Below are positions 7,495 through 48,093 of a DNA stretch of 64,000 bases, one piece after another; positions within the stretch are counted from its first letter, which is position 1, and every line of letters starts with the position of its first letter. The notes below the pieces were generated by a model that had not been told where the DNA came from, ran no database searches, and saw only the letters and a program-made list of their open reading frames with translations. The translations under genes were made by a program, and so were the position numbers. This stretch comes from Zygnema cylindricum (lineage: Eukaryota > Streptophyta > Zygnematophyceae > Zygnematales > Zygnemataceae), in assembly GCA_037447655.1 (NCBI GenBank), contig JBBHKE010003381.1, positions 1 to 64,000 on the forward strand, in the 5' to 3' direction.

Positions 7495-7509
7495 GCCACG
7501 AGGGAGCCA

Positions 7510-22890: not shown

Positions 22891-22904
22891 AGAAAATATG
22901 TCAT

Positions 22905-23110
22905 GCCGCGTCGTGTCGGCTGCTCGGCGCACGTTATCATGCACGCACAAGCGATATTTCTCACGCACGCGCAATATTTTTCACGCACGCGCAGTATTTT
23001 GTATGCACGCGCAGTTTAAGGCACGCTCGCACGGTTTTATGCATGCACGCACAATTTTGGCACGCGTGCATAATTTTCGTTCGCACGTGCGATTTCACGT
23101 CGATTCATTT
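22905..23110. repeat. Imperfect CACGCACGCG tandem repeat
   Basis: About eight irregular copies of a 20-30 bp unit built from alternating purine-pyrimidine CACGCACGCG followed by CAATATTTTT-like spacers. It is CpG rich and directly follows the end of Gyp-6 gag. Such alternation favours Z-DNA. Confidence 0.8.
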
Positions 23111-23169
23111 ATTTATGATGTGTACGTGATTCGCGTGCACGTTTCATTGAATAGTACTAATTCCATGCG

Positions 23170-23355
23170 ATATGTTTCATTTCGTGCGCATGCATTTGAT
23201 TTTGGAAATATGGACGCGAAGTATCGTTTTGGCGACGCATCGCGATTTCCAGAAGTATTTCGTGCGGTATGTTTCGTTTCGTGCGTACGCACGTGATTTT
23301 GGAGTATAGACGCCAAGTATCGTTTCGCGACGAAGCGTGATTTCCAGGAGCGTTG
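23170..23355. repeat. Tandem duplication of a ~97-bp unit
   Basis: Two adjacent copies share TATGTTTC-TTTCGTGCG, TGATTTTGGA, AAGTATCGTTT and GATTTCCAG-AG blocks in the same order with scattered substitutions. The first runs about 23,170-23,265 and the second about 23,268-23,355. Confidence 0.8.
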
Positions 23356-24145
23356 GTGGCGCTTCGATGTACTTTTATTCTTTAAAGTTATGAACCCACG
23401 TAGGTTCACGCATGCATGTAGATAATGAGGGTTTTTACCCTTGTATTGTGGATTTTGTTAGGCGTACGGCAGACGATGTTGGCCGCCTATTGGCCAACAT
23501 CTTAAGTTGTTCCATTCATGTAAACTAGGCTAGACTTTGGCTAGTTTTGCTCTAGGCGTAGCTTAGCCCCTACTTAGGCATTCTCAGACTTAGAGAATTT
23601 AGCTTTTGGACAAGAATTTTCTCTTGGCGGCGGAGCTTTTCTCTTGCTCTCTCTCTCACCGATTGCTCAAGTTTCTTCTTTCCTTTTGCTAGCTAGGTGT
23701 AGAGGCTAGATAGTTTACGTATATTCTCCCTTGTAATTCTGCCCACGCTTTTAATCCACGCGGCTCAAAGCCAAGTCCGGAAGGTTTCCCTCCAACTTGT
23801 GTCATTTTTGGGAAGTGGTGGATTGGAGTTCGTGTGGAGAAGCATCCGGATCCGGCTGCCCTTCCCACGGACAACTGAACGGTTTGGGTGTTTTTATTTG
23901 TGTTGTTTGTATATTCGGTTGGGAATGGAAGGGTGAATTTTGACCGAATTTGGAGTTTTCCTTGTTTTTGGTTGGAATTATTTATTTTGCTTCGTTGCTT
24001 TCCTATGAGATAACTCTTGTAAAGAATACGTTGAAGACCCAAGAGCCTAGTGGCTACCTTGTGGCTGATTATTCTTGTCCAAAAGATAAAAAAAAAAATC
24101 TATTAAAACTATAAATTTTTATTTTATATATAAATATATATATAA
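23356..24145. other. Unassigned sequence left of the assembly gap
   Basis: No coding signature. A TGTTAGGCG at 23,457 followed by promoter-like and CT-rich sequence could be an unrecognised LTR, but no partner or primer site is visible. The last 60 bp before the gap are AT rich. Confidence 0.5.
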
Positions 24146-24236: not shown

Positions 24237-24353
24237 ATCAGTAGATAGGAGCTGTGCAAAACCCGACTTGCTTCGAACAAGTTCGATTCACTCTTAGTGC
24301 TCACCAGAGTACTAAATGTGTCTGTAAGTAGCCGATGCCTTGCGGGTGTAGGA
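24237..24353. other. Short unassigned segment between the gap and Cop-7
   Basis: 117 bp with no recognised feature. It is the left flank of Cop-7. Its last five bases (TAGGA) do not match the right flank (CACGA at 35,225-35,229). Confidence 0.6.
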
Positions 24354-25350
24354 TGCAATTTTGTGTCATCCATTTGGACCAAAATTGAGGAAGCCTCTAG
24401 GTAGTTTTTGACTAACCCACTTTCAACGAGAGCAATTGCTACCCTAGAAGATAAATAGATAATCTGATTGCACCCTTGTGCAGTTTGGACTGCCCTGTGT
24501 CCACAGAAAAAGGAATCACTGAAAACGCTTAACCAAGCGATTAATTATCGAGTGGCAAAAGGTGCCAATATTTATACAAGATTGTTGAGAGAGAGGTGGC
24601 TACCTCCTCAATTCACTAAGTCCTAAACCCTCTCACAACCCCTATCTACTGATGTACGGAACCAATCAGAAGACTGTATAGTACAGAAGGTACTATGGCC
24701 GATGTACTTTCTGTACGGCCTGTGTACAACAAGGCCATGGAGTGGACGTCTGTCTCCTCCGGACTTGTCCTCACGCTCCCCCCGGGATTCCAATTTCCCG
24801 ATGACAAATTGCCACGTGTTGCCAGGTCATGTTACATCCCAAAACCGCCAAAGCGGCCATTCCAGGATCTCGGCAATGATGTGAGCCGTTGGATCCAACT
24901 TGGCTTTAATTCCCAACAGTTCAAAACAAATTTTCGGTACATTTGTTTCGTGAGCACTAAATTCCCCAACTAGTTTCTATGTATCCTATTTGTAATTCCG
25001 TTTATCGGATTTAGTCGTCTATCTATTGTATAAATAGCTATCGAACCCCATGTATCCTAACGGACTACCACGACAGACTGGTAAGGATTGACGGCTATGC
25101 CTCGCCCTACCAGTCGGAGGTTCGAGTCCTGCTGGACTCAACCTTTTTGGTTGAGAGTGACTTAGGTCACTCTTGAGCCCTGCCTATGGAGCTAAGGCAG
25201 CCATGGCTCCACCGCCCTCTCTCTCCTTAAGTGACTACAACAAGTGTGGGGGCCAGAGAGAGAAGGTGGAGGCAGGCTACCTCTGCTTTTCTTTTCTTTG
25301 TTTTAATTAAGACCTAGAAAATATCTCACTTAAATCTAGTGATTTCAACA
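24354..25350 (-). repeat. 3' LTR of Cop-7
   Basis: From TGCAATTTTG to TTTCAACA on the plus strand, pairing with 34,230-35,224. It holds a perfect pol III B-box match GGTTCGAGTCC at 25,119-25,129, a GAGTGAC/GTCACTC hairpin at about 25,155-25,172 and the arm-conserving hairpin at 25,197-25,279. Confidence 0.94.
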
Positions 25351-25362
25351 CTCCCTTTATTT
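25351..25362 (-). promoter_or_regulatory. Polypurine tract of Cop-7
   Basis: AAATAAAGGGAG on the minus strand, next to the 3' LTR. One purine differs from Cop-3. Confidence 0.8.
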
Positions 25363-25363
25363 T

Positions 25364-27409
25364 CTAGTCTAATTTTAATTTCTCTTTTAATCCACATTTC
25401 TCTCTACAATACTTCAGCTTGGGAGATGGTACAGGCTTTGTCATCATATCAGCCACCATTTCCCCATCACATCTATACACCAAATTCACAATTTTATTTT
25501 CCACTTTTTCCCTCACAAAGCTCAATCTTATATCCATATGCTTAGCTTTGAAATGATGTTTTGGATTGGCTGCAATTGCAATTCCAGCCTGATTATCACA
25601 AAACACTTCATGTACTCCCTTCTTCATGTACCCCAATTCTTGCAACAACGACTTCACCCACATCAACTCTTTCACAGCAGAACAAAAGGCTATGTACTCA
25701 GCCTCCATAGTGGACTAAGCAACAACCATTTGTTGCTTGCTGCTCCAACAACAAGCACCTTCCCCCACAAAAAATACATACACAGAAGTGCATCTTCTCA
25801 TAGGTGCATCCCCATAACTGGCATCACTCCTAGTAGTGACGTCAGTGTGCTTTCCTCCCGAATGCAACCATAGATCATTAGTTCCCGCCAGGTATCTCAT
25901 TACTCTCTTGGCTGCCTGCCAGTCTCTCTTTTTAGGATTATTCAGACTCCTATTGAGGACTCCAACTGCTGCAGCTATGTCAGGCCTAGTACAATTGATA
26001 AAGTAAATCAAACTTCCTACAACCTGTCTGTAAAGAATAGACTTCATAAACTGTCTCTCTTTTGGACTCATCTAATCATCTAACATTATCACTCTTCCTT
26101 CTACACTTCGATCACTTACTTTCTTCAAGTCCATGTGAGTGGTACAACTATTTGCATTCTCCATCTGAAATTTCTCTAGCATATTTCCTATAGCCTCTTT
26201 CTGAGTAAGTCTGATGATCCTCTTCCCCCTATCTCTTTCCATTTGAATTCCCAAAATATATTTAGCCTCCCCTAAATCCTTCATGTCAAATCTGCTTCCC
26301 AGATCTTTCTTTAGCCTATTTATCTTCTCCATAGACTTACTCAATACCAGCAAATCATCCACATAAATTGCAATAAAAATCACACCATTCTCATCCTCAA
26401 ACATATAAATAGAATGGTCAGAACTGATCCGAATATACCCCAGACTGGTAAGAAACTCATCTAGTTTCTTATTCCATTGTCTGGGGGCCTGCTTCAGTCC
26501 ATATAAGGACTTTATAAGTCTGCAGACTTTGCTTTCCTCTCCTTTCTCTACAAAACCTTCTGGTTGCCGCATGAAGATTTCTTCCTCTAGTTCACCGTTG
26601 AGGAAGGCGGTTTTGATATCCATCTGGTGAATTTCCATGTCTTCCGCTGCTGCTAGACTAAGGAGAATCCTTACAGATGGGAATCGAACTACCGGAGCAA
26701 AGGTCTCCTCATAATCTATTCCCTCTTTTTGAGTGAACCCTTTTGCCACCAGCCGAGCCTTAAATCTCTCAATGGTGTTATCAGGATTCAATTTTAGTTT
26801 AAATACCCATTTACACCCTATGGGTTTTCTATCTGGTGGACAGTCCACCAGCTTCCAAGTATTTGCCTCCATGATTGAAGCCATTTCATCATTTATGGCT
26901 CTGACCCACCTTTCTTTCTCCGGACTGTCCATTGCCTCTGAGTATGACTGAGGCTCATCTGGATGAGAAATCTTTGTTACCTTCCAAGCAGCATGTTTTC
27001 CTTGAAGCCTTTTGCTTCTCCTCCGTCCTCCCTCAAAGTGCGAAGCTGCAATAGAGGGAAGTCTTGGATTCCTCCGAACTGTCTCATCAGCTCCCCTATC
27101 CATGGGAATCTGTTCTGGCTCCTCTTCCTCTCTCTCCTCAAGGGGTGTAGGAATATGAGGGGATTCTAATATATATCCCCTATCTTTTATCTCCCCTGAA
27201 TCTGCAATCATGTTTTCACTAGTGTCCCTTCTGGGAAGATCTAAATCCTCCTCACTCTCGGACTCAAAACTGATTCTGATTTTCTTAGTGTACATGAAGG
27301 GATCAAAAGACTTCCATTCATCCATGACAACTAGATGCTTTACCAGAATGATATCTTGTTTAGGGAAGTCATAGACTCTATATCCCTTGACATCCTCATC
27401 GTATCCCAC
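25364..27409 (-). pseudogene. Cop-7 integrase tail, reverse transcriptase and RNase H
   Basis: A single reading frame of about 680 codons with only two stops. The N-terminal part is the integrase tail and acidic linker (VKGYRVYDFPKQDI to RRNPRLPSI). RT follows with RFKARLVAKGFTQKEGIDY, KSLYGLKQAPRQW and catalytic YVDDLLVLS. RNase H carries SDASYGD, the KHMDIRLSFV segment and the terminal MMTKPVPSPK. Both stops (about 26,069-26,071 and 25,709-25,714) are TAG where Cop-3 has Gln, that is CAG to TAG. It is the best preserved polymerase in the window. Confidence 0.94.
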
Positions 27410-28074
27410 AAAATATCCTGGTTTCCCTTTAGCATCTAATTTCCAGTTTTTCTTATCTGTGTCAAGACTGTAAACTTGACTACCGAATACTTTCAGGTGA
27501 GAAACACTCGGTTTATTTCCAACCCATCTCTCTTAAGGAGTCATTCCTTTTACAGCTATGGTGAGGACTCTATTCTTAATGTAGTTAGCACCGTTCATGG
27601 CCTCTGCCTAAAATCTTCTTCCTATTTTCTTATCTGCCAACATGTTGCACACACTATCTCCTAAAGTCCGGTTTAACCTTTCAGCTACCCCATTCTGTTC
27701 TGGATTATTCGGTACAGTTTTCTGATGCTGAACTCCCTCATCTCTCAAATAAACCTCAAACTAGTTAGAGTGTACTCTCCCCCATTATCACTCCTTATTC
27801 TCTTAATGGGGGTTCCGTAAAACTTCTCACTCCAGGCTTTGTATTCTTTAAAGTATTTTGGTGTTTCAGACTTTGTTTTCAAGAAGTAGACTCTGGAATA
27901 TCTGGACCAATCATTAGTAATTGTCAGCATATACCTCTTCCCCCTAACTGAAAGAACTCTTGCTGGTCCCCAAATATCTGTGTGGACCAGATCTAGTACT
28001 TTCATACCTCTATATGTGGCAGTTTTGGGAAAGGGAAGTATGTGAGCCTTACCTTGGGCACAGCCACTACAGTC
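27410..28074 (-). pseudogene. Cop-7 integrase core, distal part
   Basis: 27,745-28,005 contains the first catalytic Asp (VHTDIWGP) and the second (SDNGGEYT). The region with the catalytic Glu (about 27,690-27,720) is frame-shifted. The zinc-finger Cys residues lie at the TRG-B insertion, which falls within the codons for DDCSG. The other half of the finger is at 32,612 onwards. Confidence 0.9.
28070..28074. repeat. Left target-site duplication of TRG-B (CAGTC)
   Basis: CAGTC, repeated at 32,607-32,611. The uninterrupted site is readable in Cop-9 near 42,675 as a close variant. Confidence 0.93.
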
Positions 28075-29003
28075 GTTGTTTTGAAAAGTCAGTTTCGTGC
28101 TTAAGTGCTAATTGGATTTAATATGGAGGTTTGAATAGATTCACAGATTGGGGGAGCGAAGGGTTTGATAATTAAAGTTACGTAAAAGATTCATTGAGTG
28201 GTGTGAACAAGCAATGACGAATGGACGGCGGATCGCGAAGCGATCCGATGTAAAATAAACGGAATGTTGAAATAGGCGCCGCCGGTACGGAGCAGCTGCG
28301 ACGCAGTTAAGTCAACGCAGTTGCGGCTATCTTCATGATCCGTACGGAAAGCGCAGCCAGCGCAACTACGGATAATATGAATAGGATAGATTTCAAGTAG
28401 TGATGATTAAGCATAGTGGTAGCTTAGTTTCTGACATACGAAGAGTACGGTGTAAATATTCTGTACAACAGAGGTTTGTCTTTTTGACTAGTTAGGTTAA
28501 TAGAGTAGATACACTACGGCTGGTATGCCTCCGTACTCTGAGTATAACTTGCAGGACTTAGATTATTTTATGGATCGCAGTCAAGTTAATCAAAGCTATG
28601 GCAAACTGTTTTCTGCATCTTTGACCTGTTGGTGTGATCACTCTGATTGGTGTTTTTATGTGAAACTATGTGGAGTTATTCTATGATATAGAATCTATAT
28701 GTGTATGAAGTTTCATTGTATTCCAGTATCTCTGTAAGATTCTGTGATCAGTCTAAGTGGCAAGTTTGTGAAGCTGTCAGCTACATATGGGAAACTCTAG
28801 AGCTTATATCTTCTAGATGCCTTGGTGGATTTGGCTGTAACTTTGAGAGTTTACAGTGTATATGATATAGTGCATATTGGTGCTGTTTGAGATCATTTTG
28901 TTTATTGTGGAGTAATATGTGTCGTCTGAAACATAGCTGCTTTTGAGGTAGTCTGTGGGTGTTTCCGTGAGTAATCCATGGCTGCAATAAGCTATGGACA
29001 ACA
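28075..29003 (+). repeat. 5' LTR of TRG-B (family B)
   Basis: Aligns along its whole length with 31,677-32,606 with few differences. It lacks the first T of the 3' copy. It ends CTATGGACAACA before the primer site. Palindromic CGGATCGCGAAGCGATCCG near 28,230-28,248. A diverged relative sits at 5,098-5,964. Confidence 0.95.
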
Positions 29004-30726
29004 GGTTATGGGCCCACACCCATGGCTACCTGTATTTGATGGATCAAAATATCACTACTGGAAGTGTGCTCTCGAGAGCTACTTCGAGATGATGGAACTA
29101 ATGGATGTGGTGGACGGTACATTGGCCGAAACTTCAAATGGATGGAAAAGTAAAAATCATGAGTGTCTGAGGGTTATTAAGAACTCCTTGACTCTGGATT
29201 TAGTAATGTCATACATAAGTGTTAAAAAGGCAGCTGAATTATGGAAGTGCTTAGAAAGTATGTATGCAAAGACTTCTTTATATCATTGGCTTAGTAGTGT
29301 TACCAAAATAGTTGAACACAAGTATGTAGGAGGTAGTATGGAGAAACACTGTATTGACTTACAAGTATTATTTGCAGAAAATGATTTGGCAGGAGGAAAC
29401 TTTACAGATGCTCAACAAGCTATCTTGTTAATGAGAAGTCTACCTAAAGAATATAAGAATGCACTAGATCGATTGACTTTAATTGATAAAAATGATTGGA
29501 GCGTAACTGTAGCTAGACGAGTTATTTTAGATGAAGAGGCTAATAGAAGGGTCTTATCAAGTGAAAGGAATATAAAGGAATCTAAGTCACAATTTCAGAA
29601 ATTTAAAAGTAATAGTGAGTTCGGAGATCGACCAAAGAATTGTTTTTACTTTAATGATTTAGGACATACCTTCAGGGTATGTCCATCGTATAAAAGTGCA
29701 TGTGTTACAGGAAATTTCAGAGATGGATGGGACAACAACCTAGTTCGAACCCCAAGAAGAAAGGAATCAAGTGATTTCGTGAGTGAGAGACAAGACTCGA
29801 CAAATGACAAAAGGCATACACCGTGTGTTGACGAATTTATCTACTTACCGACCGTGTGTGTTGTTTGGAATGGAGTAAAGGAGGAGGTGACAGAAAAGGA
29901 TTTGGTGTCTGTCCCTGTTCACGACGTCAGATTTGTGAGTAACAAAGAGTTAAAGGAGGAAGAGTTATTCGAAGTAAGAGAAATTAGAGGAAGTGAAGGT
30001 TCCTTGGAAGTGGAAGTCGAAAAATACTTAAACATAAAAACTAATACATTAAACCCAGTATTTCCAGAAGGACCGGGTGAAGATATGAAGAAAATTGGAA
30101 TTAGGAATGAGGTGTATAATGTGGAAACAGGTGAAAGGAGTTTTGCCACCGAAGATAGTGTGGTGAAGGAGAAAAGAGAGAAGGACAGGATTTTTGTGAC
30201 TGTATCAGATGACAAATCTGTGAGTGAAAGTTTCTTACAAGAAAGGTTGTTAACAAAAGTAAGAGGAGTTGAAGGAAGAGATGGCCACTTTGAAGCAGAA
30301 ACTAGAAATAAGGTGGACGTGAAAATTGGGGAACTAGGAGAAGAACAAAGAAAAACTGTTCAGAAAATTGGAGTGAGAAAAGAAGTTTGTGGGAGTGAAA
30401 AATGTAATAGAAATGCAAAAGTTAAAATTATAGGAAAGAAAAATTGCAAGAAAAGAGTGCAGCTGAAAAGAAGAAGAATCAAAACTATAATTTCTCAAAT
30501 GAATGAAGTTGCTGGAAGTAGCAAATGTATGGCGAAAAACATAAAGGTGAAACATAAAACTAGTATTTTTGACATTAAACGAGGAGAAAATTGTGACAGA
30601 AGTGTAAACTTTAAAACAAGACAAAAGATCATGAGGAAAACAAAAAGAAGATGTAAAATTCAAAGGATCAGTGGTAGAAGAAAACATGCTCAGAAAGTGA
30701 TCAAGAGAAGAGAGCGGGAGAAATGA
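28978..30726 (+). CDS. TRG-B Gag-like protein, 582 aa
   Basis: The frame opens at an ATG inside the LTR and passes in frame through the ATG of the primer site (29,008), so the protein begins at either. Residues about 15-210 are a Copia-type Gag (DUF4219/UBN2-like): FDGSKYHYWKCALESYF, then KSLPKEY-like RSLPKEYKNALDRL. A zinc knuckle follows at about residues 221-234, but its second Cys is Phe (CFYFNDLGHTFRVC), so zinc binding should be weakened. The remaining 345 residues are highly charged and end in a basic K/R-rich tail. That tail has no protease or polymerase motif and I do not recognise it. The uninterrupted 1.7-kb frame is the longest in the window. Confidence 0.85.
   Translation: MAAISYGQQVMGPHPWLPVFDGSKYHYWKCALESYFEMMELMDVVDGTLAETSNGWKSKNHECLRVIKNSLTLDLVMSYISVKKAAELWKCLESMYAKTSLYHWLSSVTKIVEHKYVGGSMEKHCIDLQVLFAENDLAGGNFTDAQQAILLMRSLPKEYKNALDRLTLIDKNDWSVTVARRVILDEEANRRVLSSERNIKESKSQFQKFKSNSEFGDRPKNCFYFNDLGHTFRVCPSYKSACVTGNFRDGWDNNLVRTPRRKESSDFVSERQDSTNDKRHTPCVDEFIYLPTVCVVWNGVKEEVTEKDLVSVPVHDVRFVSNKELKEEELFEVREIRGSEGSLEVEVEKYLNIKTNTLNPVFPEGPGEDMKKIGIRNEVYNVETGERSFATEDSVVKEKREKDRIFVTVSDDKSVSESFLQERLLTKVRGVEGRDGHFEAETRNKVDVKIGELGEEQRKTVQKIGVRKEVCGSEKCNRNAKVKIIGKKNCKKRVQLKRRRIKTIISQMNEVAGSSKCMAKNIKVKHKTSIFDIKRGENCDRSVNFKTRQKIMRKTKRRCKIQRISGRRKHAQKVIKRREREK
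29004..29018 (+). promoter_or_regulatory. Primer binding site of TRG-B
   Basis: GGTTATGGGCCCACA directly after the LTR, 14 of 15 bases identical to the Cop-3 and Cop-5 sites. The ATG is in frame with the gag-like ORF. Confidence 0.92.
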
Positions 30727-31464
30727 TTTTCTGGAGAACGTGAAGCTAGAGAAATCTTAATTTTGGAAAAACTTATATTATAAGCACATCTTATACAGTC
30801 AACTTCGTTTGACATTCTATTTTTGGTAGGATCTTCGATTTGGTGTTCTTTCTTGTTGAGTTAGTTAATAAGAAACGAAAAGATTTTATTATGAAGACGA
30901 AGGAGGTGGCGGAAGCAATGGCTTGTTCAGGAAGGAAAAATTCGGGAGACATGGCAGACCGCAATAAAAAACAAATAGAGAATCATCAGAAGAAGTTTGC
31001 GTCGCGAACAGCGACGCAGCATAGCGGCGCAGCGAAATGAGTGGTGACGTATGACACTTACACGCTGATTATTTTATTTCAAGTGAAGGCAACTAAATCT
31101 TCAGGCAACTAAATATTCAGGGGTTATACATTTATGGCGTAAGAGGAGCTATTATAGGACACTTTTTGCAAGAAGGCAGCAAACGACTGGGAATTGGCAG
31201 AGAGCAGCAAACGCAATGGCGACGTCGGCAAAGCACTGGTGATGTGTTTTTTTTTTTTTTTTTTTGCTAAATTTATTGTATGATTAACAGTGAAGGTTGA
31301 TAAAGAACTTTGAATATCTAACTAATTTTTATTTGGAAACATTTGCGTGCAGCATGGCCTAATGAGTCTAAAGCTTTAGGGGAGTGTAGAATTTGAAAGC
31401 TTTAGTCTCAGTAGATGAGGCTATGAGGAGGAAGTTAAAGGCGAAAAAGAGCAGCAGTTAGGAA
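30727..31464 (+). other. Non-coding internal region of TRG-B
   Basis: No supported ORF. It contains a GTCGCGAACAGCGAC inverted repeat near 31,001-31,015 and a poly-T run at about 31,245-31,265. Confidence 0.7.
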
Positions 31465-31640
31465 TGCGATGTCAAACTAGCGCAGCATAGCAGTACACGC
31501 TACATTTTGTATTCATACTGCGCTGCGATGTCAAACTAGCGTAGCGTAGCAGCATAGCACTACACGCTGCATTTTGTATTCATACTGCGCTGCGATGTCA
31601 AACTAGCGCAGCGTAGCAGCATAGCAGTACACGCTGCATA
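31465..31640 (+). repeat. Triple tandem repeat in the TRG-B 3' region
   Basis: Three copies starting TGCGATGTCAAACTAGCG at 31,465, 31,524 and 31,591. The first spacing is 59 bp and the second 67 bp, owing to an extra GCGTAGCA-like block. It lies just upstream of the polypurine tract. Related motifs occur in the Gyp-6 LTR. Confidence 0.9.
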
Positions 31641-31668
31641 TTTTTCTGGGTGCACGAAACTAAATTTT

Positions 31669-31676
31669 CGGGGGAG
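31669..31676 (+). promoter_or_regulatory. Polypurine tract of TRG-B
   Basis: CGGGGGAG directly before the 3' LTR. Confidence 0.8.
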
Positions 31677-32606
31677 TGTTGTTTTGAAAAGTCAGTTTTG
31701 TGCTTAACTGCTAATTGGATTTAATATGGAGGTTTGAATAGATTCACGAAGTGGGGGAGCGAAGGGTTTGATAATTAAAGTTACGTAAAAGATTCATTGA
31801 GTGGTGTGAACAAGCAATGACGAATGGACGGCGGATCGCGAAGCGATCCGACGTAAAATAAACGGAATGTTGAAATAGGCGCCGCCGGTACGGAGCAGCT
31901 GCGACGCAGTTAAGTCAACGCAGTTGCGGCTATCTTCATGATCCGTACGGAAAGCGCAGCCAGCGCAACTACGGATAATATGAATAGGATAGATTTCAAG
32001 TAGTGATGATTAAGCTTAGTGGTAGCTTAGTTTTTGACATACGAAGAGTACGGTGTAAATATTCTGTACAACAGAGGTTTGTCTTTTTGACTAGTTAGGT
32101 TAATAGAGTAGATACAGTACGGCTGGTATGCCTCCGTACTCTGAGTATAACTTGCAGGACTTAGATTATTTTATGGATCGCAGTCAAGTTAATCAAAGCT
32201 ATGGCAAACTGTTTTCTGCATCTTTGACCTGTTGGTGTGATCACTCTGATTGGTGCTTTCATGTGAAACTTTGTGGAGTTATTCTATGATATAGAATCTA
32301 TATGTGTATGAAGTTTCATTGTATTCCAGTATCTCTGTAAGATTCTGTGATCAGTCTAAGTGGCTAGTTTGTGAAGCTGTCACCTACATTTGGGAAACTC
32401 TAGAGCTTATATCTTCTAGATGCCTTGGTGGATTTGTCTGTAACTTTGAGAGTTTACAGTGTATATGATATATTGCATATTGGTGCAGTTTGAGATCATT
32501 TTGTTTATTGTGGAGTAATCTGTGTCGTCTGAAACATAGCTGTTTTTGAGGTAGTCTGTGGGTGTTTCCGTGAGTAATCCATGGCTGCAATAAGCTATGG
32601 ACAACA
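31677..32606 (+). repeat. 3' LTR of TRG-B
   Basis: Starts TGTTGTTTTGAAAAG and ends GACAACA, followed by the CAGTC duplication. Near-identical to 28,075-29,003. Confidence 0.95.
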
Positions 32607-32611
32607 CAGTC
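32607..32611. repeat. Right target-site duplication of TRG-B (CAGTC)
   Basis: Identical to 28,070-28,074. Confidence 0.93.
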
Positions 32612-33340
32612 ATCCATCATCTCATTATCTCCAAACTGAATGCCCTCTACTACACCCAACTTTTTCATTTCCTTTAGTCTATCAAAATGCAAATGTCCCA
32701 AACGCTTATGCCCGATCATCAAGCTCGGAACACCACCATAGTAAACACTCTTCTTTTCATTACTCAGGTTAAGCCTAAACATTCCTTGGCTACCCTTATC
32801 TGCTGTGAAGTAGACTTAATCTCCATACTTAGGTGTAAAGACTCCCTTTCTAGTGAAGGTATCAAAATCCTTGTCATCTATTACAGAGGTAGACACAAGA
32901 TTCTTACTCAACTGAGGAATGTAGAGCACATCTGAGAAGGTGAGAATAGAAGTCTTTCCCTCCACTAATACTTTCAGATCTACCGATCCCACTAGATCTG
33001 TGGTAACTACTCTCCCATCCCCATACTCAATTTCCACAGTAGGGATCTTTCTTAGCTTAGTGAAGAGGTGTTTGTCATGACACATATGCATGGATGCACC
33101 TGAGTCGATGATCCATCCCTCTTCTGGTGCTTCCCGAATGGCTCGAAGGGCACACTTCTGTTTCCGAGGGATCTCCTTCTCCTCTAGATTCTCGTCAAGA
33201 AGAAGCTCCCCATCCTCCTCCTCGGAGGACTCGTCCTCCTCGGTCTCTCTTTTCACTCGTGTGACCACAAGTGCTTTCTTCTCCCCTCCGGAAGAACCAC
33301 CTCCACGATTTTCTTGAAGCCTCAGCTCCGATAGCTTGAT
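32612..33340 (-). pseudogene. Cop-7 protease, pre-integrase and proximal zinc finger
   Basis: Protease active site IIDSGASMHMC is intact (about 33,085-33,120), followed by LSKNLVSTS of the pre-integrase domain and the two His of the integrase finger (HKRLGHLH). A TAA replaces a Glu codon near 32,818. The reading frame stops in TRG-B sequence, because the insertion falls between the His and Cys pairs of the finger. Confidence 0.9.
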
Positions 33341-34258
33341 TCAATCAGAGATGAAGTGCCCCAGCTTTTTGCAGAAATGACAAAGGCCCTTTGGAGTCCT
33401 CGGTTCTCCCGATTGATTCTTTTCCCCTTTGAAGATGTTGTACGACTTCTTCGGATCCTTTTTCCACCGCTCCGTTCCGGTAGCTAGAGCTTGAACACTC
33501 TTTCCTCCTCTTCGGATCTCAATGGTGTTTTCTTGTACAAGTATCATTCAAACCACGGTGCTCCACTTCCAAGCACTATCATCCATTTGTTGCACTCGGT
33601 ACACTATATTTTCATACTCCTCCGGCAACTTCATGATGAGAGTGTTAACTTTCATCTTCATAGTGCCTGTCCATCCGGCAATTTCCATCTCCATGTATAG
33701 ACAAGAGAGATCGGTACAATAGTCCAACATCTTTCCTCCTTTGAAAGTATAACTAATCAGCCTTTGCTCAACCAGCTGAAGCTCCTGAATAGTGGTAGCT
33801 CTATAGATCTCCACTAAGGTCATCCACAACTCCTCGGCCTTGAAGATTTGAATGTGAGAAGTTGCTAACGCTTGGGTGAGGTGCCTGGCATTCATGTTGG
33901 TGTACTCCCACATCTGAATGTCGTTTTCCTCGGTCTTCACGGCCACCGATCCGGGTGCCATGGCAAGAGGAGTGAGAGGTGTCTGATTTCCTTTCACTTT
34001 TTCGGACACACTGCAGTCCCCATCATCTGTCTCCTCTGTTGGAGCAGATCTTACAGCAAAAAACCTCACTCCTCCAAACCCTGGTGGAGTTCCTTGAGAT
34101 GGACGTTTCACTTGTCCACTAACAATACCCCAATATCGTTTCTCACATAATGCCCCTGTCATCATAGCTTCCCAGTAAATGAATCCAGATTCGTTGAATA
34201 TGGGCACCCTAGAGGGTGAGCCCATAACCTGCAATTCTGTATCATCCATTTGGACCAA
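33341..34258 (-). pseudogene. Cop-7 gag
   Basis: An open frame of 236 codons begins in the LTR (34,258) and passes through the primer-site ATG at 34,225, giving MGSPSRVPIF. It is Copia-type Gag with WEAMMTGALCEKRYWG, WEYTNMNARH and LIMKLPEEYENIVYR. A TGA then replaces the Arg of VVRMILVQENT (CGA to TGA). The zinc knuckle CHFCKKLGHFISD has lost its last Cys to a TGA. An acidic linker leads to protease. Confidence 0.92.
34215..34229 (-). promoter_or_regulatory. Primer binding site of Cop-7
   Basis: Minus strand GGTTATGGGCTCACC, one mismatch from the Cop-3 site. The gag ATG is retained. Confidence 0.9.
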
Positions 34259-35224
34259 AATTGAGGAAGCCTCTAGGTAGTTTTTGACTAACTCACTTTC
34301 AACGAGAGCAATTGCTACCCTAGCAGATAAATAGATAATCTGACTGCACCCTTGTGCACTCTGGACTCCCCTAAGTCCACAAAAAAAAGAATCACTGAAA
34401 ACGCCTAACCAAGCGATTAATTATCGAGTGGCAAAAGTTGCCAATATTTATACAAGCTTGTTGAGAGAGAGGTGGCTACATCCTAAATTCACTAAGTCCT
34501 ACACCCTCTCAAAACCCCTATCTACTGATGTACGGAACCAATCAGAAGACTGTATAGTACGGAAGGTACTATGGCCGATGTACTTTTTGTATGGCCTGTG
34601 TACAACAAGGCCATGGAGTGGACGTCTGTCTCCTCCGGACTTGTCCTCATGCTCCCCGGGATTCTAGTTTCCCGATGACATATTGCCACGTGTCGCCAGG
34701 TCATGTTACATCCAAAAACCGCCAAAGCGGCCATTCCAGGATCTCGGCAATGATGTGAGCCGTTGGATCCAACTCGGCTTTAATTCCCAACCGTTCAAAA
34801 CAAATGTTCGTTACATTTGTTTCGTGAGCACTAAATTCCCCAACTAGTTTCTATGTATCCTAGTTATAATTCTGTCAATCGGATTTAGTCGTCTATCTAT
34901 TGTATAAATAGTTATCGAACCCCATGTATCCTAACGGACTACTACGATAGACTGATAAGGATTGACAGCTATGCCTTGCCCTAATGGTCGGAGGTTCAAG
35001 TCCTGCTGGACTCAACCTTTTTGGTTGAGAGTGACTTAGGTCACTCTTGAGCCCTGCCTATGGAGCTAAGGCAGCCATGGCTCCACCGCCCTCTCTCTCC
35101 TTCAGTGACTACAACAAGTGTGGGGGCCAAAGCGAGAAGGTGGAGGCAGGCTACCTCTGCTTTTCTTTTCTTTGTTTTAATTAAGACCTAGAAAATATCT
35201 TACCTAAATCTAGTGATTTCAACA
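34230..35224 (-). repeat. 5' LTR of Cop-7
   Basis: Partner of 24,354-25,350. GTAC-rich block near 34,555-34,605, T-arm-like motif at 34,993-35,003, hairpin at 35,071-35,153. Confidence 0.94.
34445..34452 (-). promoter_or_regulatory. TATA box of the Cop-7 5' LTR
   Basis: TATAAATA on the minus strand, in the same position relative to the LTR end as in Cop-3. Confidence 0.65.
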
Positions 35225-35348
35225 CACGAGCGTTCCGATTTAGTGTGGACACTCGTGTAGGGGATCGGTGTGGAGTGGTTCCATCGTGAACCTTTCTTAT
35301 TGAGCATTTGCATTTTCTTGTTTTCCCTACATGCTAACTGGCCCTAAG

Positions 35349-35360
35349 TGGTATTGGATT
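35349..35360 (+). promoter_or_regulatory. Possible primer binding site of Ret-8
   Basis: TGGTATTGGATT matches 9 of 12 bases of TGGTATCGGAGC, the site seen in Gyp-6 and LARD-11. If correct, 35,225-35,347 is the end of its 5' LTR. Weak evidence. Confidence 0.35.
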
Positions 35361-36000
35361 TTTGTCTGACTATCTGGAGTGGGATTTCTTGCTAGACCTT
35401 GCCGTGGGTGGCACCGTGTAGTCCTTTTCGCGGCTGTGTTGCTGTAGATTTGCACCCAAGGATGCGTGGTTAGACATTTTCTTGTCTTTATAGATCTGGC
35501 CCTTTGGCCTTGTCAACTGTTTGCAGGGTAGAGGTTTTGGTAAACCGACTTCTTGCTAGATATGACCAGCGGGTATTGATAGTGACTGAGTGTGTTGACT
35601 AGACGAGTGGATTGGTCTGACACGTGTTGCACATCGGTTAGGACGTGCGAAACATTTCAGTATTGTAGTAAGGGTTTTCCCCTTTGTTTATGCCCACAGA
35701 TTGAGATAACCTTCCTTACCAATCCGGGTCCACCCGAGGCGGTACATTTACCGTTCTCAGCAGTTAGATCATTCGGATTTTCCCGAATCGTTGACCACGT
35801 CCGATCCGATTGCGGATCGCAGATCGCCGTTAGTACGGTCTGGTCTGACATCCAGGTCCTCATTATCTTCAGTTTCATCTAGGTCATACCTAGAGGGGAC
35901 CGAAGAAGACTTCTCGGAGGAAACCTTTCCAACTGCTCACACTCGTAGGTTCCCTGCCAGCCCAGCTTTGGCACAACCGACACATCCGCCTCCTTACAAC

Positions 36001-37287
36001 ATGGCTTCCTCTTCAGAGGGATCCATGGGTAAGACGCCTTTCTGCTTTTCCGGATTAAAAGACACTATGTCCTTGTCGCATTTACAGATGTTATACGACA
36101 CGGAAATGAGGGATCTAGCCTTTAGATATCAAGATAGGTTTGACCTGCGTGTCGCCTTTTCCCTTCTCGGTCGATACCTCTGTGGTACGGCCCTCACCCT
36201 GTACACTCGCAAGTACGAGGATGTTCTTACGATGACAGAGTACGTGGCTCCCTTTGCGGGGTTACCAAAAGTCCTAGGTCAGGTGGATATCCCATACCAG
36301 GCCGCTAGACCATCGGTATTAGATGCCAATGGGGACGAGTTGTATCCAGCTATCCCCGAGGTTCCTTGTCAGTACGCAGTGGCTGCCCGGGTGGCGGTCC
36401 CAACAAGAGCGGGGGACACCATTCCTTTACGTGACCCTGTCTCAGTCATGTTTGACATCCTCCAAAAGGAGTACCGGATGCAAAATCCGGATCAGATGAA
36501 AGAGTTGATGAACTTCGAGCGTAGGCCGGGTGAAATTGCCTTGGCCTTGCGGGCTCGGATGGAAACTGTGTGGGAGGCATTACCGGATCTCATGTCCGAT
36601 GCAAAAGCTGTTCAAAAATTTGTGGGACAGTTTCCAGGTCCATCAAAAAGGTTTATCCAAAACCACCTTAGTCAAATATATGGACTAAAATTCACCTTTG
36701 AGCAAGCGGGTCAATACGCGGTAGAGTATGAGATGCAGACATCGTGGTGGGATGCCCATGAGCGGTCCAAACCTCCTCACAGGGAACTGGCTAATCCATC
36801 CCCTCCTCCACCTAAAAACCCATGCCCTCCTAATAGGCCCCAGAAGACACCAGCCATGGGAATTCCACCCGTTAGTCCCGAAAACCGAATGTGTTTCCGA
36901 TGTGGAAAAACCGGACACGATGCCCGCATGTGTCAGGAAAAGGCGGCCACTTGCACTCATTCCCACCAAAAGGGACATTATGTTCATCTGTGCCACATCA
37001 AGGACCCTAATTTCACTTATCAAAATCAGATGAAGAACGGCGGAATTCCGACGTGTTCCGCGAAACCAATCACTCCGCCTAAGGAAACCGAGAAAGAGGA
37101 AGTTCCTCCTAAGATCTCTCGTAGAGAGAGAGAGAAGGCCGAGCTTCAAGCCACGATGGCGGCCATGATGAAAGAGCAATTTGCAGCTTTCATGGCCGAA
37201 ATGAAACCCCAGTTTACTGGGTTTGCTAAGATCGTTGTTCACATGCCGTCGTTGGCCGGGCGAACCCTTCGAGATTCCACCGTCTAA
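36001..37287 (+). CDS. Ret-8 Gag, 428 aa
   Basis: The first ATG in a frame open from 35,710 is at 36,001; the upstream residues are Ser/Thr/Pro-rich. A retrotransposon-gag-like helical region spans about residues 20-250 (DILQKEYRMQNPDQMKELM, FVGQFPGPSKRFIQNHL). A zinc knuckle CFRCGKTGHDARMC is intact. A second, CTHSHQKGHYVHLC, has Ser at the second Cys. The tail is charged. The frame ends in TAA at 37,285, which may be a decayed Gln codon, because protease continues in the same frame. Confidence 0.85.
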   Translation: MASSSEGSMGKTPFCFSGLKDTMSLSHLQMLYDTEMRDLAFRYQDRFDLRVAFSLLGRYLCGTALTLYTRKYEDVLTMTEYVAPFAGLPKVLGQVDIPYQAARPSVLDANGDELYPAIPEVPCQYAVAARVAVPTRAGDTIPLRDPVSVMFDILQKEYRMQNPDQMKELMNFERRPGEIALALRARMETVWEALPDLMSDAKAVQKFVGQFPGPSKRFIQNHLSQIYGLKFTFEQAGQYAVEYEMQTSWWDAHERSKPPHRELANPSPPPPKNPCPPNRPQKTPAMGIPPVSPENRMCFRCGKTGHDARMCQEKAATCTHSHQKGHYVHLCHIKDPNFTYQNQMKNGGIPTCSAKPITPPKETEKEEVPPKISRREREKAELQATMAAMMKEQFAAFMAEMKPQFTGFAKIVVHMPSLAGRTLRDSTV

Positions 37288-38115
37288 CAACGGGTAGCCA
37301 CATTTTAAAATGGCTCATCGAACCATAACCAAGTGCGCAAATTACAAAATTCTCGTGTCCCACTTTCATTTGCAAAAGAGCCTCTGGCTTCCCTACTAGA
37401 AACCGCTCCTACCATCGCGGTAGAGGAACTAACTACATTAGATAGCACTATTCATGAGGCTCATCGGGTGAAGGAGCGACTAATTATTCTTTCAGCAATG
37501 TTGGAGGATGTACCGAAAGCCCTTCCCTTCGTTGATAAGGTCGCAGCGGCAGCCGCTTTGAGGGCTCTATAGTTAAACGGCAGTCTCTCAGCAGTTCAAC
37601 CGGTTACTACGGAAGAGCGTCGTAATCTCGATCCTCATATCAGTTTCCTTGATAACTATCGGGGATCATTCTCAGTAAACGGTGTTCACCCCACTCTTCC
37701 TCTCATGGACACCGATGCCAAACCCATGATCCGCGGATCCGGATTTGTGCTCAAGCTTGGTCTTACAGCAGGCAAGCTTCAAGCGATCGCTACCCGCCGT
37801 CTTACTTCGGCTGGGACCACGGAGCTGGTCTTCGGAATCACAAAGGACCCGCTCATCTTTCGGTTTCAGACAGGAACCGAAAATGAGTCCATTGAAATTG
37901 CTGTCAGAGCGTTGGTCATTAAATGTGACGACTATGAGTGTTTGGTGGGTCAAGACGTTATATTCCGAATTGGCGGTGGCGTGGACATGCACGACCAAAT
38001 ATTTTCTTACCGACCAACACACTTTCCGGAGCGCAAAATCTGCTTCCATCTCATTTCTGCCCGCCGACCTTTACCCACTGTGGCTCACTCGGCTACGGCT
38101 CTTCCCGCATTTTAG
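37288..38115 (+). pseudogene. Ret-8 linker and retropepsin-like protease
   Basis: Same frame as Gag. Stops at 37,306-37,308 (TAA), 37,570-37,572 (TAG) and 38,113-38,115 (TAG) are each one C-to-T step from a Gln codon. The protease signature is PLMDTDA at 37,699-37,719, where the usual Asp-Thr/Ser-Gly has Asp in place of Gly. A YECLVGQDVIF stretch matches the conserved second hydrophobic-Gly motif of retropepsins. Assignment as protease is by motif and position. Confidence 0.75.
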
Positions 38116-38917
38116 GGGAACTCTGTTGGGGAGGAAATTTTCCACTCCCTTTCGGCCAAAGAAATTATACCGGATTGTACTCCTTTACCCGAGCTCTTTG
38201 CGGAACCGGGTTTTCTTATCAACTCTCACACATTTGACAATATTTATTAGTCCACATTATTTGTTCCATTAACGCCTATCCCTCCTTTACCTACAGTTGC
38301 AACCAATCCTTCGGGTTTCCTTCCAATCAATTGGAAGCCAGTACAGTTGAGTCCTCATACGGACAAGGTCGTTATTTTAGATCTATTTGCTGGGATCAAA
38401 ACTTCGCTATTGTCATGTTTACGGAATGGTCTCCTTATCCGTCACTACTATGCAGTAGAAATTGATGCATTAGCTAGAAAAGCACAATTGCACCACCGCA
38501 ATCTCTTGCATTTACAGTATCCACAGTTTTTTCCAAAGTCAGCCTTTCTACATATGCACACTGCTCTTCCACAAGACATACGCATCCTTAGTAATCATCA
38601 TCTACGGGATGTCGAACCGATAGACCCTATTTTCGGAGGGTGGGAGTGTCAAGGCATGTCTCGGGTCGGCAAAGGTCTTGGTTTGGCGGATCCCCGTACC
38701 AAATTGTATTTTGACCTTTTGAGGGTCTTTCATTTTTTTCAAACCATGGTCAAGCCTGTCGGATACATTTTAGAGAACGTCGCCACTTATAATGATCCTC
38801 GGCCAACAGTACTAGGTGAATATAAGCGCATAGAACACCTTATCGGACCCCCGCTAATTATTGATGCCGCTCAACATAGGTCCTTCGCACATCAAGTTCG
38901 CTCTAAATGGACGAACA
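38116..38917 (+). pseudogene. Ret-8 C5-cytosine DNA methyltransferase domain (truncated)
   Basis: Continues in the protease frame after TAG at 38,113 and TAG at 38,248. Motif I (S-adenosylmethionine site) is VVILDLFAGI at 38,368-38,397. Motif II is YYAVEID. Motif IV is GGWECQGMS, with the catalytic Cys at 38,647-38,649 and Glu in place of the usual Pro. A DPRTKLYFDLLRV stretch follows, then motif VI ENV at 38,773-38,781. A region near 38,857-38,917 (DAAQHRSFAHQVRSKW) resembles DNMT3/DRM motif VIII. The target-recognition part and motifs IX-X are missing, because the Cop-9 LTR begins at 38,918. The last ~20 codons of the open frame are LTR sequence. Confidence 0.88.
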
Positions 38918-39953
38918 TGCAATTTTGTGTCCTCCATTGGACTACACAAAACATGAAGCCTCTAGATAATATTTAACTAAACCACTTAAAGCCACAACCA
39001 CTGCTGCCCAAAAAGGCAAACTGACAATTTGACTGCACCCTTGTGCAGCCTGGACTCCTTTGAGTCCGTAGCAAAAATAATCACTGAAAACGGCCAACCA
39101 GCCGATAAGTTATGAGGCAGTAAAAATGCCAATTTGTACAAACTCTCAAAGGGAGAGGTGACTACCTACCAAAATTTTCTAAGTCTTGATTCTCTCTAAT
39201 AACTTATATCTATTGAAGTACGGACCAATCGGATTACTGTACCGTACAAAAAAGTACTACTGCCGGTGTACCTTTTGTACGACCTATGTACGACAAGCTA
39301 TTAAGCGGACGCGTGTCCGCTTTTGACTCGTCCGTACGTTTCTCGAAATTCTTATGATCGAATGTCATCTCTCCACGTGGCTCCAGGTCATGCCACATCA
39401 CAAAATGTCAAAGTGACCACTCCGTGATTTTGACGATGATGTGCGCCGTTGGATTTTACGCGAAATGCAATCTTAACCGTTATAAATACTTGCGCGTCAT
39501 TTGTTTCGCTGTCGAAACAAAATACGTGGTATCTGTTTCGGATTAGTATTGACTATGTACTTTCTAAAACTGCACCTATGTATGCCGAATGCAGTTGCAG
39601 TTAAATGGATTTATTCCTCCCTAAATAAATATATATCTATCACATACTATAGCATTTAGCATTAGTCCTAGTCTATTAGGATAAAGCTGACTGCTACCGG
39701 CAACCTTGACGAACCGCAGGTACCGGGATCAAATCCCAGTTCCATCAGGGATATTTTTAGTTAACCTACTAAAAATAACTACCAGTTGACCTAAGGCAAC
39801 CATGGATCAACCACCCTCTCTATCCTTCAGTGACTACAACAACTATGGGGGCTAGACAAAGGAGGTGGAGGCAGGCTGTCCGTCCTTTTCTTTTCCTTTT
39901 ATACAAACATATTTAAACCTTGAAAATACTCTAGAAATCTATTAATTTCAACA
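38918..39953 (-). repeat. 3' LTR of Cop-9
   Basis: From TGCAATTTTG to TTTCAACA, 1,036 bp. T-arm-like GGATCAAATCC at 39,726-39,736, hairpin block at 39,795-39,880, GTAC-rich block near 39,240-39,295. Confidence 0.92.
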
Positions 39954-39965
39954 CTCTCCTTATTT
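39954..39965 (-). promoter_or_regulatory. Polypurine tract of Cop-9
   Basis: AAATAAGGAGAG on the minus strand adjoining the 3' LTR. Confidence 0.78.
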
Positions 39966-42778: not shown

Positions 42779-43239
42779 TGAAACTTTGAGACCTCCATAA
42801 GTCCTCAGAGTCGACAGCTTCCAAGAAGCCTCTAGGATTACCCTGACACCTTTGTGTTTCAGCAAAAATAACTGCCACCCTGGCAGAAAAAAACCCTAAC
42901 CAACTTCACCCCTGTAAAGGCAAGACTCCCCTGAGTTGTTAGCAAAAAGAATCTCTGAATTTGCTCCCGTGAGCAGTAAGTTATGGAGGGTCAAAGTTGA
43001 CCGTTTGTACAGAAGCTCTCTAGGAGAGAGGGTCTTATCTTCTAATTTTTCTAAGTCCTATCTCTCTCATAATCTCTATCTACTGATGTACGGAGCCAAT
43101 CAGATTGCAGTTCCGTACACAAAAGTACAGCTGCCGGTGTACTTTCTGTACGAACATTGTACGACATGGCCTAAATGTCGACACATGGTATATCTGAATT
43201 CGCTCCCTTAATCCTCGGAGATGCCGCGATCCAATGTCA
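42779..43239 (-). repeat. LTR-10: half of a Copia LTR
   Basis: Starts TGAAACTTTG and follows the U5-R-U3 order of the reverse complement of LTR-12 (54,970-55,996) with high similarity. It is cut in U3 at 43,239 where LARD-11 begins. The remaining U3 is not found on the far side of LARD-11. Confidence 0.88.
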
Positions 43240-43967
43240 TGTTAGGATTTAGTACTGAGAACTCATTTAGCGACGAGACATTCTCGTAGCTAAAGTAGCG
43301 ACGACTAGCGACGAAGTATTTTCGTCGCTGAATATTTGAAGTGCCAGCGACGAAGTAGTTTCGTCGCTAGATATTTGAAGTGACGTAGAAATTGAATGTT
43401 TGTTTCGTTTCACGTAAGTTTGATTCGTACTATAGAAGTGACGTGGAAATTGTTTGGTCGTTTCGGTTCACGTAAGTTCTAGTCGTACCGTGTGGTTCAA
43501 GTTGTTTCGTGGTTGACTTGTCTAGTCGTACCGTGTAGTTCAAGTCGGTTCTCAGTTGTTGGCCGGATGTTTTCACCACGTTGACTCTTACGCGTTTCTA
43601 ATCGTGTACCGTGGTATTGTTACGTGACGTTTGAAGAAGGATATTGAGGCGTAGTGAGAGGGAGGTTTTTTATCAATTTGGCGAGGGTTGATCCTCCTTG
43701 TAGACTATGAAGGAGTTCAAGGAGTTAAGGGAGTTTGATAGCTTTGTGGTGATTCTTGAGGAGTTAGAAGAGGTTAGTGAAGATTAACTTTTATATGATT
43801 AAGAGGAGTTAGAAGTGAGTGCGTTTTGAAGGTGTGAGGAAATTATGTAAGAAATGTTTCCCTTTGGAATATATTGACTTCCGGTTACATTTCTCTTGTG
43901 TGCGTTTTGTCATTTATGCTTCCGCTGGCATTTGCGCTAAGTTTATGTTTTGTATATGATCCTTTCA
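43240..43967 (+). repeat. LARD-11 LTR copy 1 (728 bp)
   Basis: Starts TGTTAGGATT and ends CCTTTCA. Three adjacent GCGACGA-type hairpins lie in the first 130 bp; the other copies have two. It is the most diverged copy. Confidence 0.92.
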
Positions 43968-43969
43968 AT

Positions 43970-43981
43970 TGGTATCGGAGC
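43970..43981 (+). promoter_or_regulatory. LARD-11 primer binding site 1
   Basis: TGGTATCGGAGC two bases after LTR copy 1, identical to the Gyp-6 site. Confidence 0.88.
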
Positions 43982-43989
43982 AGGTTGTA

Positions 43990-45622: not shown

Positions 45623-45862
45623 TTGGAGAAACCATTTTTTTTTGTTTTATTTGAGGAAGAATCTCGGATGTATGGAGCGACTAATTTGGAAGATCAATTT
45701 CCGAAAGTTTTCAACAAATTGATGTGGTATATTGATGCCCTATTACAATCTGAATCAAGAGGAGAAAAGGAAAAGAATCATTTGCCGGATAATTCAAATT
45801 CCTATTTTGATGATGGAGATGAGAGTGGAGGAGACGAGTATGTGAAGGAAGAGAAGAGGTAA
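45623..45862 (+). other. LARD-11 relic ORF, internal region 1
   Basis: 79 codons including FEEESRMYG, NLEDQFPKVF and KLMWYIDALLQSE. The same peptide occurs in internal region 2 at about 49,548-49,718. It may be the last trace of an ancestral gag. I do not recognise the family, and no start-to-stop protein is preserved. Confidence 0.45.
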
Positions 45863-48076: not shown

Positions 48077-48078
48077 AT

Positions 48079-48090: not shown

Positions 48091-48093
48091 AAG

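What the first reader, a model, noticed from the sequence alone, without database searches (positions are those of the whole stretch)
35710..38917. Retroelement carrying a C5-cytosine DNA methyltransferase in frame with Gag and protease
Seen: one frame from 35,710 to 38,917 encodes a two-knuckle Gag, a retropepsin-like segment and a domain with motif I (LDLFAGI), II (AVEID), IV (GGWECQ), VI (ENV) and a motif-VIII-like stretch in canonical order. Known: capture of cytosine methyltransferases by retrotransposons has been reported for charophyte algae and dinoflagellates (de Mendoza and colleagues). Inferred: here the enzyme sits directly after protease, where RT normally begins, and would be released from the Gag-Pol precursor. 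It could methylate new element DNA and so hide it from, or expose it to, host silencing. The Pro-to-Glu change next to the catalytic Cys is unusual and may be a decay mutation or a lineage trait.
Basis: partly seen in the sequence, partly recalled or inferred. Interest (0 to 1): 0.88.

Follow-up and report, generated by a model that had tools for sequence, protein, structure and literature searches.

The report
Dead jumping-gene copy with DNA methyltransferase
This stretch is a broken copy of an abundant virus-like jumping gene that carries its own DNA-methylating enzyme, a kind first described in a freshwater alga in 2018, and its better-kept relatives show that the enzyme is a long-standing part of the element.

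Summary
Window 35,225-38,916 is the gag-protease-methyltransferase part of a Ty3/Gypsy element. Its methyltransferase (38,317-38,916) hits PF00145 at 4.7e-9 and folds like DNMT3. This copy is dead: five in-frame stops, the last 147 residues of the enzyme missing, two Copia insertions. The host genome gave 150 scored matches (its own included; a lower bound). One uninterrupted 2,395-codon frame reads Gag-PR-DNMT3-RT-RNaseH-IN-PHD, so the enzyme belongs to Pol and is not a neighbouring host gene. Glu instead of Pro before the catalytic Cys is a lineage trait (37 of 38 close copies). Two copies read in full have DIRS-like split repeats (A-coding-B-A-B), as reported for KnitGypsy-Dnmt3 of Klebsormidium nitens (de Mendoza 2018), so the kind is known. 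Additions here: 60 public relatives, five traceable to Closterium, Haematococcus and Mesostigma; two placements of the enzyme in Pol that split both the RT and the enzyme tree; TGTC...GACA ends with 4-bp target duplications in 4 of 10 units; a GACA-GC-TGTC junction suggesting a circular intermediate opened by the integrase. The elements are not CpG-depleted, which speaks against lasting CG self-methylation. What the enzyme does remains inferred.

The parts
22899..24071 (+). 5' terminal repeat (A1) of the same Gypsy copy, starting TGTCATGCCG; its end is placed by alignment
   Evidence: 81% to the A1 region of the C449 copy over 22940-24085; start motif at 22899
24248..24353 (+). leader of the Gypsy copy, left of the first Copia insertion
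   Evidence: 93.4% to L033 8091-7986
24354..35224 (-). Copia material nested in the Gypsy leader; LTRs 24354-25350 and 34230-35224; 5-bp site duplication TAGGA/CACGA (CAGGA in the relative without the insertion)
   Evidence: LTR pair 94.6% identical over 997 nt, duplication against the C449 copy
35225..38916 (+). Gypsy leader end, gag, protease and truncated methyltransferase
   Evidence: 90.0% nucleotide identity to L033 7990-4299 over 3693 columns
36040..37044 (+). Gag with one CCHC knuckle and a second, mutated one
   Evidence: 68% to the 334-residue Gag segment of L031
37654..38076 (+). retropepsin-like protease
   Evidence: 67% to the protease segment of L031, 141 of 141 residues; relatives match PF13650 weakly, below its cut-off (0.0027 and 7.9e-5)
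38317..38916 (+). DNMT3-type C5-cytosine methyltransferase, residues 1-201 of 348; recognition domain and motifs IX-X absent
   Evidence: PF00145 4.7e-9; best solved-structure matches DNMT3A; extent
38918..39954 (-). LTR of a second Copia element that cuts the methyltransferase
   Evidence: aligned pieces 71-77% to the LTRs of the first nest; starts TGCAATTTT

Best explanation
The stretch is a decayed, nested copy of a high-copy Ty3/Gypsy element of the KnitGypsy-Dnmt3 kind. Shown in relatives: Pol reads Gag-PR-DNMT3-RT-RNaseH-IN-PHD; the ends are split direct repeats (A-coding-B-A-B) bounded by TGTC...GACA, with 4-bp target duplications in part of the units; catalytic Cys and motif VI Glu are each kept in 37 of 38 close copies. 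Inferred: the protease frees the methyltransferase, which acts as a de novo cytosine methyltransferase on the element's own new DNA (most likely), probably transiently or outside CG, since no CpG loss is seen. Inferred: the integrase inserts the element by opening a circular intermediate at the GACA-GC-TGTC palindrome formed where B meets A.
For: PF00145 hit and DNMT3-like fold. Architecture in relatives. 150 scored matches in the genome, the window's own included. Catalytic Cys and motif VI Glu each in 37 of 38 distinct close copies. Methyltransferase dN 0.12-0.17 among four copies of three subfamilies with synonymous sites saturated. Relatives in 60 public proteins, with RT and enzyme trees splitting by placement at 100/99. 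Split repeats and junction. Exact 4-bp duplications in 4 of 10 units with both ends. Precedent in K. nitens.
Against: CpG observed/expected is 0.78-0.97 in ten Gypsy loci against 0.43 in pooled Copia coding of the window, and decay of the window copy shows C>T hardly more often at CG (0.092) than elsewhere (0.077): no footprint of lasting CG self-methylation. The close family has Glu instead of the usual Pro before the catalytic Cys. The enzyme evolves faster than RT (dN 0.12-0.17 against 0.04-0.05; shallow pairs median dN/dS 0.247 against 0.137). Four of ten units show no target duplication. No tRNA-like primer site was recognised after A1, by eye.
Confidence: 0.8

Rival explanations
1. The methyltransferase acts in trans: it methylates host chromatin or competing elements and so shifts the balance between element families.
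For: Copia coding in the same window is CpG-poor (0.43) while the carrier is not (0.78-0.97).
Against: Host methyltransferases explain Copia CpG loss equally well; only Copia of one window was measured, and age and composition were not matched.
Confidence: 0.2
2. The domain is kept for binding DNA, SAM or a partner (a DNMT3L-like role) rather than for catalysis.
For: Glu replaces Pro before the catalytic Cys in 45 of 61 tree rows, with 7 to 9 changes needed on the tree.
Against: The catalytic Cys is kept in 30 of 30 public proteins examined and 37 of 38 close copies; a non-catalytic domain would be expected to lose it.
Confidence: 0.15
3. The methyltransferase is a host gene or retrocopy lying next to a Gag fragment by chance.
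For: In the window alone a Copia LTR follows directly, so continuity with Pol cannot be seen.
Against: One uninterrupted 2,395-codon frame, further loci and public proteins carry it inside Pol.
Confidence: 0.02
4. The A-coding-B-A-B ends come from recombination between neighbouring copies after insertion, not from the replication cycle.
For: A-coding-B forms (L035, L038) and solo A-B forms also occur; C2577, C783, C1643 and C1571 show no target duplication.
Against: Exact 4-bp duplications bracket A1 start and B2 end in C1344 and C829, and the solo A-B units C215 and C2130. At blastn E <= 1e-5 the 35 nt around the B-GC-A junction are the only stretch outside gag-to-B1 that aligns between the C449 and C1344 copies.
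Confidence: 0.12

Closest known systems
KnitGypsy-Dnmt3 of Klebsormidium nitens (de Mendoza et al. 2018, PMC5890265; parts 1-3 of 7 read, passages)
   Same: DNMT3-type methyltransferase inside Pol of an LTR Gypsy element, DIRS-like repeat structure, purifying selection, several copies
   Different: Order within Pol, a PHD finger, target duplications and the residue before the catalytic Cys are not stated in the text seen (figures are not held); no K. nitens sequence was in hand to compare
SymbioDIRS-Dnmt3 of Symbiodinium (same paper)
   Same: DNMT3 in Pol, split direct repeats
   Different: Tyrosine recombinase instead of a DDE integrase
Animal DNMT3A/3B catalytic domain
   Same: Motif order and fold
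   Different: No ADD or PWWP domain was hit in the relatives; Glu instead of Pro before the catalytic Cys; 19-23% identity in the listed structural matches
Ty3/Gypsy chromoviruses (recalled)
   Same: Chromatin-reading module at the end of integrase
   Different: PHD finger instead of a chromodomain; methyltransferase in Pol; split repeats

Membership tests
KnitGypsy-Dnmt3 kind | DNMT3-type domain in the Pol frame of a Gypsy element | tested here: met
   in relatives; in the window copy only as far as the truncated domain
KnitGypsy-Dnmt3 kind | DIRS-like split repeats A-coding-B-A-B with Gypsy-type domains | tested here: met
   C1344 and C449 copies; B-A-B in further contigs. L035 and L038 end at B. 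The window copy lacks its 3' end
KnitGypsy-Dnmt3 kind | purifying selection on the methyltransferase | tested here: met
   dN 0.12-0.17 with dS saturated; shallow pairs median dN/dS 0.247, 15 usable of 66 after removing copies fetched twice
KnitGypsy-Dnmt3 kind | sequence relationship to the K. nitens element | not testable with these tools
   no hit bears a Klebsormidium name; most hits name no organism
DNMT3 | unrearranged motif order and closest structural match | tested here: met
DNMT3 | Pro before the catalytic Cys (PCN/PCQ, recalled) | tested here: not met
   Glu in 37 and Asp in 1 of 38 close copies; Pro in 15 of 15 loci of the second family
DRM | rearranged motif order (recalled) | tested here: not met
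   motifs I to VIII run in canonical order
Ty3/Gypsy | RT-RNaseH-integrase order | tested here: met
   in relatives; in the window copy none of the three follows
DIRS | tyrosine recombinase, no target duplication (recalled) | tested here: not met
   rve integrase; exact 4-bp duplications in 4 of 10 units

The most novel reading that the evidence does not exclude
A Gypsy lineage with a DDE integrase replicates through a circle: its LTR is [B-GC-A], reverse transcription yields B-A-coding-B-A, the ends are joined (A directly to B), and the integrase opens the circle at the palindrome GACA^GC^TGTC inside the repeat, one cut per strand giving two processed ends. This permutes the element to A-coding-B-A-B and would unite DIRS-like topology with DDE integration, in a lineage that also carries a DNMT3 in two alternative places of Pol.
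Probability: 0.4. Interest if true: 0.8.

Novelty: new member of a known kind. Interest (0 to 1): 0.52.

Why it matters
A DNMT3-carrying Gypsy lineage, known to me in print from one charophyte, has 60 public protein relatives (three named Closterium, one Haematococcus, one with a Mesostigma identifier) and has kept the enzyme through a change of its place in Pol. That makes the question why a transposon keeps a silencing enzyme testable by comparison. The repeat structure, with a shared palindrome and 4-bp target duplications, gives a concrete, testable route by which a DDE-integrase element could integrate from a circle.

Tried and rejected
Plain LTR element bounded by the 34.2-35.2 and 39.0-39.9 kb repeats (first reading): rejected, these are Copia LTRs. 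A non-autonomous element made of gag, protease and methyltransferase only: rejected, RT and IN follow the methyltransferase in relatives. The window fragment found nothing at E <= 0.001 among 185 candidates of the protein collection, probably because candidates are limited by length; pieces of a relative then gave 30 and 53 proteins. Viral contigs: 7 stretches matched a pattern, none was confirmed. Phages: 116 records match, all under 60% identity, the 25 listed at 24.9-29.6%. The end structure of the second methyltransferase family (C1374) could not be resolved. A tRNA primer site after A1 was looked for by eye only and not recognised. The host was not identified. Genome size and Copia richness resemble the Zygnema cf. 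cylindricum SAG 698-1a assembly (359.8 Mb, 3,587 scaffolds; passages of PMC9915684), but this was not tested. On checking, four loci in the counts proved to be copies fetched twice; one search recounts without them, and its numbers are used.
Full report
What is in the window. The last part hits Pfam PF00145 at 4.7e-9 and the NCBIfam dcm model at 6.9e-7, below that model's cut-off. The frame is interrupted by stops at 37285, 37306, 37570, 38113 and 38248. A structure model of the 241-residue fragment, made with 14 public homologues, has mean pLDDT 82.8; its 50 listed matches among solved structures are all DNMT3 entries (best E 4.1e-12, TM by query 0.60). By sequence the best solved relatives are DNMT3A (for a complete relative). 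A complete public relative, Closterium P0020 (mean pLDDT 71.5), also matches DNMT3A/3B first (TM by target about 0.80).

Why the copy looks cut. Window 35,225-38,916 aligns at 90.0% to a relative on contig C449 (L033), and 24,248-24,353 aligns to the sequence just upstream in the same relative. Between them lies Copia material (24,354-35,224) with LTRs 94.6% identical over 997 nt and a 5-bp site duplication, TAGGA and CACGA, against CAGGA in the relative. A second Copia LTR begins at 38,918. So this is one Gypsy copy broken by two Copia insertions. The methyltransferase is cut after 201 of 348 residues, and no continuation of the Gypsy after the cut was found in the window; the contig runs on beyond the window and was not searched for it.

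Relatives in the same genome. The genome (352.8 Mb, 2,689 contigs) gave 150 scored matches out of 3,963 candidates, the window's own included; this is a lower bound. The L031 copy has one frame of 2,395 codons. Searched in pieces it shows a CCHC knuckle (8e-4, just below the cut-off), protease (weak, 0.0027), PF00145 (3e-12), RVT_1 (2e-30), RNase H, H2C2 and rve integrase, and a PHD finger (1.8e-10). L033 shows the same order over several frames. A second methyltransferase family in the same genome, about 41% identical, came up in the Pfam search.

Relatives elsewhere. Two searches of the protein collection with the methyltransferase part of L031 gave 30 and 53 proteins, 60 distinct in all. 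Organisms seen are Closterium sp. NIES-54 (three), Haematococcus lacustris (one) and a Mesostigma identifier (one); the others name no organism. In 16 of 60 the enzyme follows the protease or precedes RT, in 40 of 60 it follows RT/RNase H or directly precedes integrase, and 4 hold the enzyme alone. The RT tree (39 rows: 10 and 29) and the methyltransferase tree (61 rows: 19 and 38, 4 unplaced) each split by placement on one branch with support 100/99. Dropped beforehand: rows with methyltransferase under 270 or RT under 200 residues (P0025 and P0027 among them), P0031, own loci without one long open match, and four near-duplicates; L002 and L033, the same copy, both stayed in the methyltransferase tree. 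The truncated window copy is in neither tree. The simplest reading is one old association followed by one relocation; there is no host-gene outgroup, so the number of captures is not tested.

Catalytic residues. Before the catalytic Cys stands Glu in 37 and Asp in 1 of 38 distinct close copies (41 and 1 of 42 rows, four of which were second fetches), Pro in 15 of 15 loci of the second family, and Glu 17, Pro 11, Asp 2 among the 30 public proteins (57 of the 58 loci given had a match; the 30 proteins new were not in that count). On the tree Glu and Pro need 7 to 9 changes. The change is therefore a trait, not decay. The catalytic Cys is kept in 37 of 38, 15 of 15 and 30 of 30; the motif VI Glu in 37 of 38, 15 of 15 and 29 of 30. 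Decay in the window copy is seen elsewhere, for example DLFAGIKTS against DLFAGIGTS in motif I. Among four copies open in protease, methyltransferase and RT the methyltransferase has dN 0.12-0.17 and RT 0.04-0.05 between subfamilies, with synonymous sites saturated. For shallow pairs the median dN/dS is 0.247 (15 usable of 66 pairs) for the methyltransferase, 0.137 (4 of 21) for RT and 0.436 (57 of 171) for protease. So the enzyme is constrained, but less than RT.

Ends. The C1344 and C449 copies have repeat A at the 5' side and B-A-B at the 3' side: A 931 nt (100% identical) and B 243 nt (99.6%) in C1344; about 80% and 96% in C449. A G-run precedes B1, where a polypurine tract is expected. 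Of the ten 10-kb loci, six show B1 joined to A2 through GACA-GC-TGTC (L031-L034, L036, L037), two end at B (L035, L038), and two show no B end (L039, L040). Between C449 and C1344, at blastn E <= 1e-5, only 35 nt around this junction align besides gag-to-B1; shorter shared motifs are the A start and AGCCTAGTGGCTAC near the A end. Of 14 units looked at for target duplications (8, 2, 4), 10 had both ends: 4 exact 4-bp duplications (C1344 TTGG, C829 AAGG, C215 GTCA, C2130 ACCG), 2 with 3 of 4 bases (C449, C2573), 4 with none (C2577, C783, C1643, C1571). Genome searches with B (40 scored of 219 candidates) and A (40 scored of 357; two further partial matches left out) gave, for the 40 A: 5 flanked by B on both sides, 8 followed by B only, 2 preceded by B only (one of them, C1653, has B2 on reading) and 25 with no scored B adjoining. 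The paper on K. nitens states that its Gypsy has DIRS-like repeats (legend of Fig. 4).

Model of the ends (inference). If the LTR is B-GC-A, ordinary reverse transcription gives B-A-coding-B-A. The A2-B2 fusion is then the join of the two ends, and the inserted unit begins and ends at the palindrome inside the repeat. A cut 3' of CA on each strand of GACAGCTGTC leaves a 2-nt 5' overhang at both ends, as after integrase processing (recalled). Cleavage of palindromic circle junctions by retroviral integrases is in print (titles and starts of abstracts in the listing, e.g. PMC1180852, PMC1905944). Solo A-B units would follow from recombination between A1 and A2. Alternatives with linear DNA are not excluded.

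What the enzyme does (inference). The precedent found de novo CG methylation by SymbioDIRS enzymes in yeast and an inconclusive result for KnitGypsy. Here CpG observed/expected is 0.78-0.97 in ten loci and 0.87 in the window copy, against 0.43 in pooled Copia coding of the window (one window, age not matched). C>T is 0.092 at CG and 0.077 elsewhere from L033 to the window copy (reverse 0.056 and 0.046), and 0.121 and 0.079 from L033 to L040 (reverse 0.035 and 0.048). So there is at most a weak sign of CG methylation of the carriers. I think transient or non-CG methylation of new copies is the likeliest role (about 0.45), ahead of action in trans (0.2) and a non-catalytic role (0.15).

Literature. 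Searches of the held library for retrotransposon methyltransferases in green algae, Gypsy with PHD fingers, split repeats in Gypsy, and the element names listed no paper other than de Mendoza 2018 whose title or abstract start describes such Gypsy elements. PMC12344493 was seen in passages only; it mentions DNMT3 members inside LTR (there called Copia) and DIRS retrotransposons of streptophytes and dinoflagellates, citing de Mendoza. Most subscription papers are not held, so absence here is weak evidence.

Noticed in passing
28075-31977: Direct repeats of 300 nt at 98% identity flank a 583-codon frame with a Copia-type gag domain (PF14223, 2.5e-17) and no other Pfam domain: looks like a young gag-only non-autonomous element.
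   Followed up: partly
43239-48557: A pair of about 1.2-kb direct repeats (84% overall, 94-97% in parts) about 4.1 kb apart, with repetitive, strand-biased sequence and strong GC skew around them.
   Followed up: no
62828-63658: 277-codon frame with two zinc knuckles (PF00098, 1.9e-12) near the window end.
   Followed up: no
7292-7514: Minus-strand fragment of the B end of another Gypsy copy, with CTCATGCACGACAGC.
   Followed up: no
24146-24236: Run of N inside the Gypsy leader.
   Followed up: no
1-64000: CpG observed/expected varies from 0.27 to 1.50 between 2-kb bins, with values above 1.3 at 44-52 kb.
   Followed up: no
L046, L042, L058 and related loci: A second methyltransferase-bearing family in the same genome, about 41% identical, with Pro before the catalytic Cys; the C1374 copy has a PHD finger match; its ends were not resolved.
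   Followed up: partly
L047: A PF00145 match with no tblastn similarity to the element enzymes, possibly an exon of a host methyltransferase.
   Followed up: no
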